Shown here: piece by piece, positions 52,286 through 55,313 of the stretch | Layout: each line of letters begins with the position of its first letter | How positions within the stretch are numbered: the stretch's first letter is position 1 | DNA from: Roseivirga sp. | GTDB lineage: Bacteria; Bacteroidota; Bacteroidia; Cytophagales; Cyclobacteriaceae | Direction of reading: 5' to 3' | Assembly: GCA_021404565.1 (NCBI GenBank) | Contig: JAAWWF010000007.1 | Location: 62,001-126,000 of the forward strand | DNA length: 64,000 nt | Translations under genes and position numbers: made by a program | The notes under the pieces: generated by a model | Databases searched by the model: none | Told to the model about the DNA's origin: nothing | What the model saw: only the letters and a program-made list of their open reading frames with translations

Positions 52286-53236
52286 CTAAGGAATCGTGTT
52301 TTGCAGAATATAGGATGAGATTTTAATATCCTGAGTGGCTATTCCTGTCAAGTCAGCTACTGTAATATCATCTTCCTTTCTTTGAACGGGAGTCTTCAGC
52401 AGACTCCCTATTTCCTTCAGCTCATCTTCTTTAACCAGTCCTTTCGACACAGCAAGATGACTTTCTCCTTGGTGAAGGCACTGGGCTTTGCTGTCACAGG
52501 CCACGAGGTTTGCCTTGGCTAAAATAACCGCATCCAATTCCTGTTTGCCGGGAGCATCGGCACCCATGGCAGTGATATGCGTACCAGGCCTGATATCGCT
52601 GGCGAAAAGCAGAGGTTGCTGAGAGGCCGTGGTCGTGACAATGAGATTGCAATGAGCGGCCACCTCGGCAGGGCTTGTACAAACAGAAACGTTAAAGCCA
52701 AGCTTGTTCATATCCTCCTGATATTGCCCTGACTTCGCTGTTGAGCGTCCGTAAACATAGACTTCTTTACAGTCCGTAATCCAGCTCAGCATTTCGAGCT
52801 GCATTCTGGCCTGTATGCCTGTACCGATGATACCAATGGATTTGACATTTTCAGGACCTATGTGTTTTGCGGCTACAGCTCCCGCCAGGGCAGTTCTTAA
52901 ATCGGTCAGGTAACCTTCGTCTTGCAGCAGGCATTCGGGTAAGCCTGTTTTGGCATTGAATACCAGCATCATGCCATTGTTATTGGGCAAACCTAAGCTT
53001 TGATTTTGGTAAAACCCCGAGGCAATTTTTACTACATAATAGGGATCACTCTGGATGTAGCCATACTTGATATGCATATCTCCGGGAGGTGCAGTGAAGC
53101 CAAGATGACCTACAGGAGGTACATTGGCAGAACCATCGGAAAGTGAAATAAAGGCTTCTTCAATACACTGAAGCAGGTCTTCATTAGAGGATCCGGCTAT
53201 GATTTCACGAATTTGAATTATGTCAATGATTCTCAT
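52286..53236 (-). CDS. Ornithine cyclodeaminase/mu-crystallin family enzyme, EutC/BhcD-like
   Basis: A 316-residue NAD(P)-dependent enzyme of the ornithine cyclodeaminase family. The Rossmann motif IGIIGTGIQARMQLE and the DEGYLTDLRTALAGA block match the EutC-like branch (HIKYGYI at the N-terminal end, MGADAPGKQELD later). Relatives in that branch include the iminosuccinate reductase BhcD. Third gene of the operon; overlaps the EutB-like gene by four bases. Substrate inferred, not shown. Confidence 0.82.
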   Translation of the reverse strand: MRIIDIIQIREIIAGSSNEDLLQCIEEAFISLSDGSANVPPVGHLGFTAPPGDMHIKYGYIQSDPYYVVKIASGFYQNQSLGLPNNNGMMLVFNAKTGLPECLLQDEGYLTDLRTALAGAVAAKHIGPENVKSIGIIGTGIQARMQLEMLSWITDCKEVYVYGRSTAKSGQYQEDMNKLGFNVSVCTSPAEVAAHCNLIVTTTASQQPLLFASDIRPGTHITAMGADAPGKQELDAVILAKANLVACDSKAQCLHQGESHLAVSKGLVKEDELKEIGSLLKTPVQRKEDDITVADLTGIATQDIKISSYILQNTIP

Positions 53237-54186
53237 ATAAGCTCCTTTAGTTTGCTGGTAGTGATATTGGCACCACAGATGATGATCACTACCCGTTGGC
53301 CCGGATAATCCGCAGCATTATTCATAAAGGCAGAAAGTGCTACCGCTGCTGCGCCTTCCACAATCTTATGATGTTTGTCTACCATGTATTTGATCCGGGC
53401 AGCAATGTCTTCTTCGCTCACCAGCTCGTAGTCGTCAATAAGTTTTTGACAAAGCTCAAAGGTGATGGAATCTTCTTCCAGGCCACCCGCAGAACCATCA
53501 GACAGGGTAGGCTGATATTCATCCAGCACGACTACTTCTCCCTTCTCAACACTGAGGTACATTTCGGGTGAGTTGGCTGGCAGACAACCTATGACTTTGG
53601 TCTCCAGGCTCTTTTGCTTGAACCAGGAAGCTACCCCCGACATCATGCCTCCTCCGCCAATACAGCCAAACACAGCATCAATGGTTTCTAACTCATTGGT
53701 AACCTCTACCGCCAGGGTACCCTGACCTGCAATTACATCCAGGTCATTGTAAGGTGATACCCAGGTTTGCCCCAAATCTTTGGCCACCTGTTTTGCATGA
53801 AGTTCCGTAGTCAGTGGGTCATCGCCATGGAACTGTAGATCGGCATCATAATATTTCAACGCTTCTACCTTGGAGGGTTCAGCATTGGTGGGCAGGAAAA
53901 TCGTTCCTTTTGCTTTGGCAATGGTAAGAGCCCTGGCAAAGCCCTGTGCGTGATTGCCTGTAGATGCAGTGATTAGTCCTTTATCTCTTTCTTCCTTACT
54001 GAGCTTAAGCACCTTATTCAAGGCTCCTCTTGCCTTGAAAGAGCCTGTATACTGTTCGCTTTCCAATTTCAGGTATACCTCTCCCTTGTTCAGGTCGCTG
54101 AGGTAGGTAGAGTAAAAAAGCGGGGTTTTAAGAATTTCCGAGCCGATGCGTTCGCTGGCATCCACTATTTCCTGATATAAGCTCAT
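53233..54186 (-). CDS. PLP-dependent threonine dehydratase family enzyme, EutB/BhcB-like
   Basis: 317 residues of the fold type II PLP family. The PLP Lys is in TGSFKARGALN and the phosphate-binding loop is GCIGGGGMMSG. Segments SPYNDLDVIAGQGTLAVEV and GCLPANSPEMY match the EutB-like branch, which includes beta-hydroxyaspartate dehydratase. There is no ACT domain, so it is not the allosteric IlvA. It overlaps the neighbours on both sides by four bases. Confidence 0.85.
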   Translation of the reverse strand: MSLYQEIVDASERIGSEILKTPLFYSTYLSDLNKGEVYLKLESEQYTGSFKARGALNKVLKLSKEERDKGLITASTGNHAQGFARALTIAKAKGTIFLPTNAEPSKVEALKYYDADLQFHGDDPLTTELHAKQVAKDLGQTWVSPYNDLDVIAGQGTLAVEVTNELETIDAVFGCIGGGGMMSGVASWFKQKSLETKVIGCLPANSPEMYLSVEKGEVVVLDEYQPTLSDGSAGGLEEDSITFELCQKLIDDYELVSEEDIAARIKYMVDKHHKIVEGAAAVALSAFMNNAADYPGQRVVIIICGANITTSKLKELI

Positions 54187-55313
54187 TCAAATGACAGATT
54201 AAATTTCTCTTTTATGGCCTTGCTCATTTTGGTTAGTCCTTCAATGAGGTAGACTGACCTTTCTCCCACACCAATGCGGATATGTCCGTCCATGCCATAG
54301 CAATCTCCCGGGACAATAAATACGCTCTCCTGCTTTCTCAACCAGGTAGACAGCTCTGTAGAATTGATATCAATATCGTATTTCATAAAGGCCATACCTC
54401 CTGCCTTGGGAGGAATAAATTTAAAAAGATCACCATGGTCAGAAATCCACTGGCTGAGAATTTGCACGTTTTTATTCAGCATATCTCTGTTTCTTTTAAG
54501 AATGGTAGGCCTCACTTCTTCGGAGAGCGCGATTTCGGCTACATATTGGCTGACAATTCCTGTGGAGATGGAAGTATAATCGTGGTAAGACCAGGTATTG
54601 TAGATTTCGGTCTTTGGTCCGGCCAGCCAGCCAATGCGAATGCCGGGTAAGGCATAGGCTTTTGACAAGCCTGCTGATACCACCACCTTTTCGTAGATAT
54701 GCTGGAAGCTCGGAGTTTCCTGATAATTGAGCTCTGCACCTCTGTAGACTTCATCGGCATAAATCCAGGCATCTACTCCTCTGGCTATTTCTACTATTTC
54801 CTGCATCTCTTCATCGGTAAGTACATAACCGGTAGGGTTGTTAGGATTACAAATGATGATCATTTTGGTGTTATGAGTCACCAATGCTCTTAGCTCATCC
54901 ATATCCGGTGCCCAGTTGTTTTCGCTTCTGAGGTTAAACGCTTTAGGAATGCAACCCATCTCTTCTATAGCTCCCCATATCTGCATATAATTAGGATTCA
55001 TTACTACTACTTCATCTCCTTTTTGGAGGAGCGTATGCATGGCCAGGAAATTGGCTTCTGAAGAGCCATTAGTCACCATGATGCTATCTTCATCGAGGTC
55101 TTTATAGAGGGTAGTGGCGATTCTGCGCCTCAGAGGTATAGAACCATTTGTTTGTCCATAGCCGAGAGTCAGCTGCTGCATTTCCTCAAGTTGAGCGGGT
55201 GTGAGTAATTCTGCCAGCGAGAAAGGATGAAAACCGCTTTCTGTCAGGTTGTAGTCCACCGTGTTTTCATACAAAGATTGGATTCGCTCCAATTCGAATG
55301 TTCTGATTGCCAT
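54183..55313 (-). CDS. Class I/II PLP-dependent aminotransferase
   Basis: A 376-residue fold type I aminotransferase from the ATG at 55313 (MAIRTFELERIQ). The PLP Lys is in SAGLSKAYALPGIRIGW and the Asn/Asp pair in ICNPNNPTG and YADEVYRG. It should act on an amino acid with a 2-oxo acid acceptor; specificity is not readable. The reading frame continues to 55388, but that part overlaps the possible leader and does not fit the family. First gene of the three-gene operon. Confidence 0.85.
   Translation of the reverse strand: MAIRTFELERIQSLYENTVDYNLTESGFHPFSLAELLTPAQLEEMQQLTLGYGQTNGSIPLRRRIATTLYKDLDEDSIMVTNGSSEANFLAMHTLLQKGDEVVVMNPNYMQIWGAIEEMGCIPKAFNLRSENNWAPDMDELRALVTHNTKMIIICNPNNPTGYVLTDEEMQEIVEIARGVDAWIYADEVYRGAELNYQETPSFQHIYEKVVVSAGLSKAYALPGIRIGWLAGPKTEIYNTWSYHDYTSISTGIVSQYVAEIALSEEVRPTILKRNRDMLNKNVQILSQWISDHGDLFKFIPPKAGGMAFMKYDIDINSTELSTWLRKQESVFIVPGDCYGMDGHIRIGVGERSVYLIEGLTKMSKAIKEKFNLSFE

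What the first reader, a model, noticed from the sequence alone, without database searches (positions are those of the whole stretch)
52286..55313. Operon of an aminotransferase with EutB-like and EutC-like enzymes, without ectoine genes
Three genes overlap by four bases each: an aminotransferase, a threonine-dehydratase-family enzyme and an ornithine-cyclodeaminase-family enzyme. The last two match the EutB and EutC branches. In proteobacteria the close relatives BhcB and BhcD turn beta-hydroxyaspartate into iminosuccinate and then aspartate. Here an aminotransferase joins them, but no aldolase and no ectoine hydrolase is in the window. The set could be a shortened hydroxyaspartate or other beta-hydroxy/amino acid salvage route, not described for this phylum as far as I know.
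Basis: partly seen in the sequence, partly recalled or inferred. Interest (0 to 1): 0.72.

Follow-up and report, generated by a model that had tools for sequence, protein, structure and literature searches.

The report
Unassigned amino-acid enzyme operon, Bacteroidota
Three overlapping genes for amino-acid enzymes form a real, conserved operon that fits neither the hydroxyaspartate cycle nor ectoine breakdown; its aminotransferase belongs to an uncharacterised group that recurs beside the same kind of reductase in several bacterial phyla, so it probably belongs to an amino-acid pathway that has not yet been assigned.

Summary
In detail: an aminotransferase (AT), a threonine-dehydratase-like enzyme (TD) and an ornithine-cyclodeaminase-like reductase (OCD) overlap by four bases each. 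The same trio occurs in three of 18 other genomes of the genus, in Aquimarina and in one other Bacteroidota genome, under strong purifying selection within the genus.

The Bhc/Eut reading is mostly not supported. TD scores 386 bits for 'threonine/serine dehydratase' PRK06815 (cut-off 371), 223-254 for EutB models and 205 for BhcB, all below theirs. OCD lies in the PRK06823 clade, sister to EutC; BhcD is outside. The genome has another, far more BhcB-like gene (445 bits), no convincing BhcC, no EutE-family protein, and no DoeA among the six of 11 M24 proteins profiled.

New is the context. The AT is of an uncharacterised subfamily (motif N-x-[TS]-[ED]-S-G-[VF]-H-P), kin of PRK07324 and GntC. 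OCD lies near it in 11 of 24 loci and TD in 3; near other class-I aminotransferases, 0 of 55.

Best reading: an amino-acid module around a shared 2-imino/2-oxo acid. TD makes it from a beta-hydroxy amino acid, OCD reduces it, AT exchanges its amino group. The substrate is unknown; hydroxyaspartate is unlikely.

The parts
54183..55313 (-). AT: class I/II PLP enzyme of an uncharacterised subfamily (motif N-x-[TS]-[ED]-S-G-[VF]-H-P at residues 22-30; K218 binds PLP, R346 the alpha-carboxylate by homology)
   Evidence: best models PRK07324 323/476, GntC 264/415 and VioD 237/391 bits, all below cut-off; best folds 3op7 and GntC (8ffu)
53233..54186 (-). TD: fold-type II PLP dehydratase/ammonia-lyase, 'threonine/serine dehydratase' PRK06815 family
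   Evidence: PRK06815 386.1 bits (cut-off 371); grouped apart from EutB, BhcB, TdcB and IlvA
52286..53236 (-). OCD: NAD(P)-dependent ornithine-cyclodeaminase/mu-crystallin family reductase, PRK06823 clade, sister to EutC
   Evidence: PRK06823 391 bits (cut-off 438); 19-row clade with 100/98 support; folds 6rqa (BhcD), 1omo (AlaDH) and 6t3e (Pyr2C reductase) about equal
54183..54186 (-). four-base overlap AT/TD
   Evidence: same in G619
53233..53236 (-). four-base overlap TD/OCD
   Evidence: same in G619

Best explanation
The operon encodes a three-enzyme amino-acid interconversion module built around one 2-imino/2-oxo acid. TD removes water from a beta-hydroxy amino acid, giving an enamine/imine that becomes the 2-oxo acid if hydrolysed. 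OCD takes the imine (or the 2-oxo acid plus ammonia) and reduces it with NAD(P)H to the L-amino acid. AT exchanges the amino group of the same 2-oxo acid with another amino acid, so TD and AT are alternative entries or exits to the intermediate that OCD reduces. It works like EutB-EutC and BhcB-BhcD but on another substrate, probably not hydroxyaspartate or hydroxyectoine. Shown here: gene content, families, overlaps, purifying selection, repeated association of AT with OCD, and separation from Eut and Bhc enzymes. Inferred: the reactions, the direction, and that all three share one intermediate. Not known: the substrate and whether the route is catabolic or biosynthetic.
For: TD-OCD pairs of the same clades or nearest profiles occur without AT nearby: L165 with a YheO/PAS regulator, amino-acid ABC genes and an M20 hydrolase; L183, on a 4.8 kb contig; L206 and L207, two near-identical loci where OCD diverges from a YheO/PAS regulator and TD; L218. 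This parallels EutB-EutC and BhcB-BhcD. OCD is sister to EutC. L205 has a distant TD (32%) and an OCD (50%) around an SHMT-like gene, the kind of enzyme that makes beta-hydroxy amino acids. OCD is near AT in 11 of 24 loci and TD in 3 of 24, against neither in 55 of 55 generic class-I aminotransferase loci (Fisher p 2.8e-7 for OCD). AT keeps canonical aminotransferase features: Y52 where GntC has N52, I249 where GntC has H250, plus K218, D187, R226 and R346 (GntC residues from PMC10367076). A RidA-family gene (imine hydrolases) is next to OCD-AT in Mesorhizobium, on the other strand.
Against: AT-OCD without TD is the commoner arrangement (8 of the 11 OCD-positive loci). A simple exchange of amino groups does not explain why AT and OCD alone would travel together unless the 2-oxo acid is changed in between. 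Thirteen of the 24 AT loci show neither gene nearby (at least six of these, L070, L075, L077, L078, L081 and L086, are cut by a contig end close to AT), and one of the 11 has only a distant OCD (30%, L068). In four Acidobacteriota loci AT is instead followed by a homoserine dehydrogenase gene. No catalytic step was measured.
Confidence: 0.42

Rival explanations
1. Transaminase plus ketimine reductase, like plant ALD1-SARD4 (recalled): AT removes the alpha-amino group of a diamino acid, the 2-oxo acid closes to a cyclic imine, and OCD reduces it to an L-pipecolate- or proline-like acid. TD feeds the same ring from a hydroxylated diamino acid.
For: Explains AT-OCD pairs without TD. The OCD superfamily holds ketimine and pyrroline-2-carboxylate reductases (PMC4113996 passages), and 6t3e and 7rbp are among the fold matches. 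A Streptomyces plasmid cluster has a 2OG-Fe oxygenase and a DapF-like epimerase beside AT, a distant OCD and a TD.
Against: OCD scores far better for EutC (252.6), archaeal AlaDH (212.1) and BhcD (156.9), all thought to act on open-chain imines, than for pyrroline/piperideine-2-carboxylate reductases (PRK06141 109.1, LhpI 74.6).
Confidence: 0.18
2. Dissimilation by transaminase plus amino-acid dehydrogenase, on the logic of taurine:pyruvate aminotransferase with alanine dehydrogenase (recalled): AT moves the amino group of an imported amino acid onto pyruvate or 2-oxobutyrate, OCD acts as an alanine-type dehydrogenase that regenerates the acceptor, and TD supplies it from serine or threonine.
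For: Best solved relative of OCD by sequence is archaeal alanine dehydrogenase 1omo. TD passes the threonine/serine dehydratase model. Amino-acid ABC genes lie near AT or OCD in several loci and an SSF symporter lies upstream of the trio in G139.
Against: OCD is below the AlaDH cut-off (212 of 409) and in the tree is sister to EutC (AlaDH itself was not in the tree). The genome already has an IlvA that passes its models.
Confidence: 0.2
3. AT is not a transaminase but a PLP eliminase or cyclase like GntC, VioD or OrfR; its unsaturated or imine product is reduced by OCD.
For: GntC is the second-best fold and second-best profile. E9 and S26, equivalent to GntC E9 and S25, are kept (PMC10367076 section 9 and part 1 of section 10).
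Against: GntC N52 and H250, proposed for gamma-hydroxyl recognition and the guanidinium pocket, are Y52 and I249, and the second serine is G27. GntC and VioD models are below cut-off. The PRK07324 group (ArcT-like by recall), of unknown reaction, is nearer.
Confidence: 0.13
4. A shortened beta-hydroxyaspartate route: TD = BhcB, OCD = BhcD.
For: The iminosuccinate reductase 6rqa is the top fold match of the OCD model, by a small margin.
Against: TD 204.8 of 550 for BhcB while another gene of the genome scores 444.8; OCD 156.9 of 500 for BhcD and outside its clade; the only PF14031 protein found scores 74.5 of 690 for BhcC; AT shows no match to BhcA.
Confidence: 0.05

Closest known systems
EutB-EutC of (hydroxy)ectoine catabolism
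   Same: A fold-type II PLP dehydratase next to an OCD-family reductase in one operon; OCD is in the sister clade of EutC.
   Different: TD is outside the EutB clade, OCD differs from EutC at 19 of 83 clade-conserved positions, no DoeA among the six of 11 M24 proteins profiled and no EutE-family protein in the genome, and an AT is added. EutBC's own reactions are still only proposed (PMC13188858 section 3).
BhcB-BhcD of the beta-hydroxyaspartate cycle
   Same: Same two superfamilies and the same formal logic; an aminotransferase gene (bhcA) also adjoins bhcB.
   Different: Both enzymes fall outside the Bhc clades; no BhcC by profile; the AT has no BLASTP match to BhcA.
NCBIfam PRK06815 / PRK06823 proteins (uncharacterised TD and OCD)
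   Same: TD passes the PRK06815 cut-off; OCD groups with the S. meliloti pSymA protein that passes PRK06823 (499 bits, cut-off 438).
   Different: Window OCD is below that cut-off (391); the model descriptions give no specific function.
PRK07324 aminotransferases (and Streptococcus suis 3op7) and GntC/VioD/OrfR cyclases
   Same: Same fold and N-terminal E9...S26 elements; best structural matches.
   Different: Window AT is below all three curated cut-offs, has the distinct SGxHP motif, and keeps aminotransferase residues where GntC departs.

Membership tests
Beta-hydroxyaspartate cycle | BhcB: passes NF045641 (550 bits) and groups with BhcB | tested here: not met
   204.8 bits; outside the BhcB/THA clade, in which another gene of this genome falls
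Beta-hydroxyaspartate cycle | BhcD: passes NF045643 (500 bits) and groups with BhcD | tested here: not met
   156.9 bits; BhcD outside the 23-row clade of EutC plus PRK06823
Beta-hydroxyaspartate cycle | BhcC aldolase in the genome | tested here: not met
   one PF14031 protein, 74.5 bits against a cut-off of 690
Beta-hydroxyaspartate cycle | BhcA-type aminotransferase in the operon | tested here: not met
   window AT against two BhcA proteins: no BLASTP match. A BhcA elsewhere in the genome was not searched for
Ectoine/hydroxyectoine catabolism | EutB and EutC orthologues | tested here: not met
   EutB 222.8 and 253.6 of 413, EutC 252.6 of 472, cyclodeaminase PRK08291 310.3 of 408 bits; separate clades
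Ectoine/hydroxyectoine catabolism | EutD/DoeA hydrolase in the genome | tested here: inconclusive
   11 M24 proteins; the six profiled at E 1e-20 show at best 78.2 of 575 bits for DoeA_2; five of 11 not profiled
Ectoine/hydroxyectoine catabolism | EutE/DoeB deacetylase (PF04952 searched) in the genome | tested here: not met
   no match (the control search rang in 1 of 14 genomes, E. coli); the M20-type DoeB2 was not searched for
PRK06815 threonine/serine dehydratase | NF005292 cut-off 371 bits | tested here: met
   386.1 bits
PRK06823 OCD-family protein | NF005296 cut-off 438 bits | tested here: not met
   391 bits; but in one clade with a member at 499 bits
PRK07324 aminotransferase | NF005593 cut-off 476 bits | tested here: not met
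   323.4 bits; orthologues L011, L059, L061, L078 and L214 likewise below it, L062 and L064 of the outer group above it
GntC/VioD/OrfR cyclases | cut-offs 415 (GntC) and 390.9 (VioD) bits; E9, S25-S26, N52, H250 equivalents | tested here: not met
   264.3 and 237.2 bits; E9 and S26 kept, but G27, Y52 and I249 (residue roles from PMC10367076)
Ornithine cyclodeaminase (true) | groups with a Ti-plasmid OCD | tested here: not met
   far apart in the tree; only one OCD row, and it is long-branched
Any of these | catalytic activity on the family's substrate | not testable with these tools
   needs purified enzymes

The most novel reading that the evidence does not exclude
A widespread, undescribed amino-acid pathway is marked by a new PLP-enzyme subfamily (N-x-[TS]-[ED]-S-G-[VF]-H-P) wired to PRK06823-type imine reductases. 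The AT-like enzyme itself makes the imine, by elimination or by transamination and ring closure, and TD is a second, interchangeable generator of the same intermediate: a modular reductive remodelling of hydroxy- or diamino acids in which the front enzyme is swapped between lineages.
Probability: 0.2. Interest if true: 0.68.

Novelty: new variant of a known kind. Interest (0 to 1): 0.4.

Why it matters
Annotation pipelines label these genes ornithine cyclodeaminase, threonine dehydratase and aminotransferase, and a reader can easily mistake them for ectoine or hydroxyaspartate genes. The tests here separate them from both and show an uncharacterised aminotransferase-reductase pair kept together across phyla. 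Finding its substrate would put a function on two unassigned families (PRK06823 OCDs and the SGxHP aminotransferases) and would test whether 'make an imine, then reduce it' is a general way for bacteria to remodel amino acids.

Tried and rejected
Considered and dropped: a true Bhc or Eut operon (profiles, trees, genome search). DauB-like arginine dehydrogenase: the name and its YheO-type regulator come from memory. YheO/PAS_6 regulators do lie next to OCD or TD in L059, L069, L165, L206 and L207, and in the same cluster about 3 kb from OCD in S. meliloti L063, but no DauB sequence was available to test. Canavanine gamma-lyase: the paper is not held, only a citing paper was seen in passages; nothing ties the AT to canavanine. 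The 'atf' of putative Bacillaceae ectoine clusters (PMC13188858, sections 3 and 8 and passages) as our AT: in the one Priestia plasmid cluster of that type opened, the aminotransferase slot holds a cystathionine-gamma-synthase-like gene, so not our AT there. The promoter and terminator scan gave no more than shuffles. Fold searches did not separate BhcD, AlaDH and Pyr2C reductase. Conserved-neighbour clustering gave mostly spurious frames in GC-rich loci; only the families named in the report were used.

Rows left out before counts: L007 from the second TD tree and column table as a long branch. From the OCD tree: L154 and L155 (copies of L065 and L080) never entered, four duplicate rows removed, and the OCDs of L060, L072 and L084 (broken or fused frames; L072's entered as L157), L165, L206, L207 and L218 not entered. 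From the AT tree: L065 and L077, whose aligned slice held a stop character. L088 (34%) is not in the 24-locus count; L075 was not in the 23-genome search.
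Full report
1. Observation. The window lies in an 8.57 Mb genome. In 39 genomes drawn as relatives (the window's own included), the window TD has a match of 80-88% identity in three of 18 other genomes of the genus (G619, G620, G621) and 44-55% matches in three further genomes (G633, G632, G640) at E 1e-60. The three congeners all carry AT-TD-OCD in this order, with the same four-base overlaps in G619. Of the other three, G640 has TD next to OCD without AT, and G632 and G633 have TD without either nearby. 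Gene neighbours partly differ: by eye, cytochrome bd-like genes are upstream in G619 and a cupredoxin-like gene in the window. pN is 0.045-0.24 against pS 0.71-0.90 in 18 pairwise comparisons. The operon is real and selected, but patchy in the genus. In phylum samples, close OCD matches (49%) were found in 2 of the 295 other genomes (G254, G139), and an AT of 64% in one of the 394 others, next 44% and 39%.

2. What each protein is. TD: PRK06815 386.1 bits, above its 371 cut-off; EutB 222.8 and 253.6, BhcB 204.8, threo-3-hydroxy-L-aspartate ammonia-lyase 211.3, all below cut-off. In a 24-row tree it groups with the TDs of Roseivirga L065, Aquimarina, G139 and Rhizobium BG4 (94/97); in a 27-row tree with these and those of G406, G488 and G570 (91/91, some inner forks open); neither fork reaches the strict support mark. 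EutB (4 rows), BhcB with THA ammonia-lyase, and TdcB/IlvA lie elsewhere. OCD: PRK06823 391 bits (cut-off 438), cyclodeaminase PRK08291 310.3, EutC 252.6, AlaDH 212.1, BhcD 156.9, pyrroline-2-carboxylate reductases 109.1 or less, all below cut-off. In a 50-row tree it lies in a 19-row clade (100/98) sister to four EutC proteins (23 rows, 100/98), BhcD outside. The clade has its own H55-I56-K57-Y58-G59 pattern; of 83 conserved positions, 19 differ from EutC, 37 from BhcD and 14 from both. AT: nearest models PRK07324, GntC and VioD, none passed. An AlphaFold2 model (pLDDT 91.7) matches 3op7 and then GntC, both at 2.0-2.2 A, before ordinary aminotransferases. GntC residues proposed for the gamma-hydroxyl and the guanidinium pocket (N52, H250; PMC10367076 section 10 part 1) are Y52 and I249 here, by my reading of the alignment and the columns.

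3. BhcC: one PF14031 protein in the genome, 74.5 bits of 690. EutE family PF04952: none. M24 (EutD/DoeA): 11 proteins, six profiled, none near a DoeA cut-off; five were not profiled. The genome's BhcB-like protein is elsewhere (G000:C18, 444.8 of 550 bits) and falls with BhcB/THA in the tree. The AT has no match to two BhcA proteins. Against this, the top fold match of the OCD model is iminosuccinate reductase 6rqa (5.9e-31), but AlaDH (1.1e-30) and Pyr2C reductase (1.2e-30) are equal for practical purposes.

4. Context elsewhere. OCD lies near AT in 11 of the 24 (L065, L066, L067, L068, L069, L071, L072, L080, L084, L087, L089) and TD in 3 (L065, L066, L068); in L068 the OCD is a distant one (30%) beyond TD, so the strict count is 10. 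Of the 13 with neither, at least six (L070, L075, L077, L078, L081, L086) are cut by a contig end close to AT. None of 55 lower-scoring class-I aminotransferase loci from the same scan (L090-L144, flanks of uneven length) had TD or OCD nearby (p 2.8e-7 for 11 of 24 against 0 of 55; not phylogeny-corrected). OCD-family matches occur in 22 of 23 of these genomes at E 1e-20, 12 of them at 43% identity or more, so some carriers have the reductase away from AT. In eight plasmid regions opened from the AT search (8 of 290 records, my choice from the top of the list: L059, L060, L061, L062, L064, L168, L169, L170), an OCD-family gene is near in six and a TD in two. L060's frames look broken, and in L062, L168 and L169 the OCD is a different, distant one (24-28%). 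Re-use of unrelated OCDs beside AT argues for a functional link. TD-OCD without AT nearby: L165, L183, L206/L207 and L218. AT followed on the same strand by homoserine dehydrogenase: four Acidobacteriota loci, L075, L076, L078, L086.

5. Mechanism. Fold-type II dehydratases turn beta-hydroxy amino acids into enamines/imines, and OCD-family enzymes reduce imines of amino acids (family knowledge; OCD superfamily functions as listed in PMC4113996 passages; the serine-derived imine and RidA in PMC5619798 passages). TD plus OCD therefore most simply means reductive loss of a beta-hydroxyl, as proposed for eutABC (PMC13188858 section 3). AT most simply trades the amino group of the same 2-oxo acid. 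The weak point is the commoner AT-OCD pair without TD, which fits the ketimine or dehydrogenase-recycling rivals at least as well. I therefore give the best reading 0.42 and spread the rest.

6. Novelty. Ten paper searches over open PMC text listed no title or abstract opening that describes this AT-OCD(-TD) set. Three of the lists were cut short (20 of 34, 8 of 13 and 10 of 18 papers shown). I saw passages or sections of six papers only (PMC10367076, PMC13188858, PMC10018355, PMC5619798, PMC4113996, PMC11166783), and subscription literature is not covered. It is a new variant of a known kind: known superfamilies and known chemistry, an unassigned combination with an uncharacterised AT subfamily. 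Interest is moderate: no mechanism is shown, but the pair is conserved, unannotated and directly testable.

Noticed in passing
L168:44-10451 (Streptomyces sp. NBC_01216 plasmid): Cluster of an iron-containing redox protein, 2OG-Fe dioxygenase (PF10014), DapF-like epimerase, molybdopterin oxidoreductase, aldo/keto reductase, AT, OCD and TD: looks like biosynthesis of an unusual amino acid.
   Followed up: partly
L205:2629-8741 (G542): TD (32%), Orn/Arg-decarboxylase-like, SHMT-like, OCD (50% to window), YqcI/YcgG and EamA exporter genes in a row: possible biosynthetic cluster.
   Followed up: partly
L075, L076, L078, L086: In four Acidobacteriota loci the AT gene is followed within about 125 bases by a homoserine dehydrogenase gene instead of OCD.
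   Followed up: partly
L181:6774-8898 and L087:6046-8113: Exilibacterium genome G416 carries two separate OCD-AT pairs; upstream of the first lie genes for a 3-hydroxyacyl-CoA dehydrogenase-like protein and a beta-lactamase-family serine hydrolase.
   Followed up: no
L002:1471-2415 (G000:C18): The genome's best beta-hydroxyaspartate dehydratase-like gene (445 bits to BhcB), away from the window; its neighbours were fetched (L189) but not identified.
   Followed up: partly
L060:8001-10681 (Rhizobium sp. RCAM05350 plasmid): AT and OCD open frames look interrupted, unlike the intact ones in Pararhizobium L059; described only.
   Followed up: no
L164:6963-18438 (Priestia megaterium plasmid): EutB, M24 and cyclodeaminase genes with a cystathionine-gamma-synthase-like enzyme, M20 hydrolase, homoserine dehydrogenase and ALDH: resembles the cluster type recently called putative ectoine catabolism in Bacillaceae.
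   Followed up: no
L218:6358-10356 (G640): TD-OCD pair (43/49%) preceded by genes that look, from the sequence alone, like a sterol desaturase and a class-V aminotransferase.
   Followed up: no
L068 and L170: AT lies near trimethylamine-methyltransferase-like (MttB) genes in Aerophobetes and Leisingera; in L068 a proline-racemase-family gene as well.
   Followed up: no
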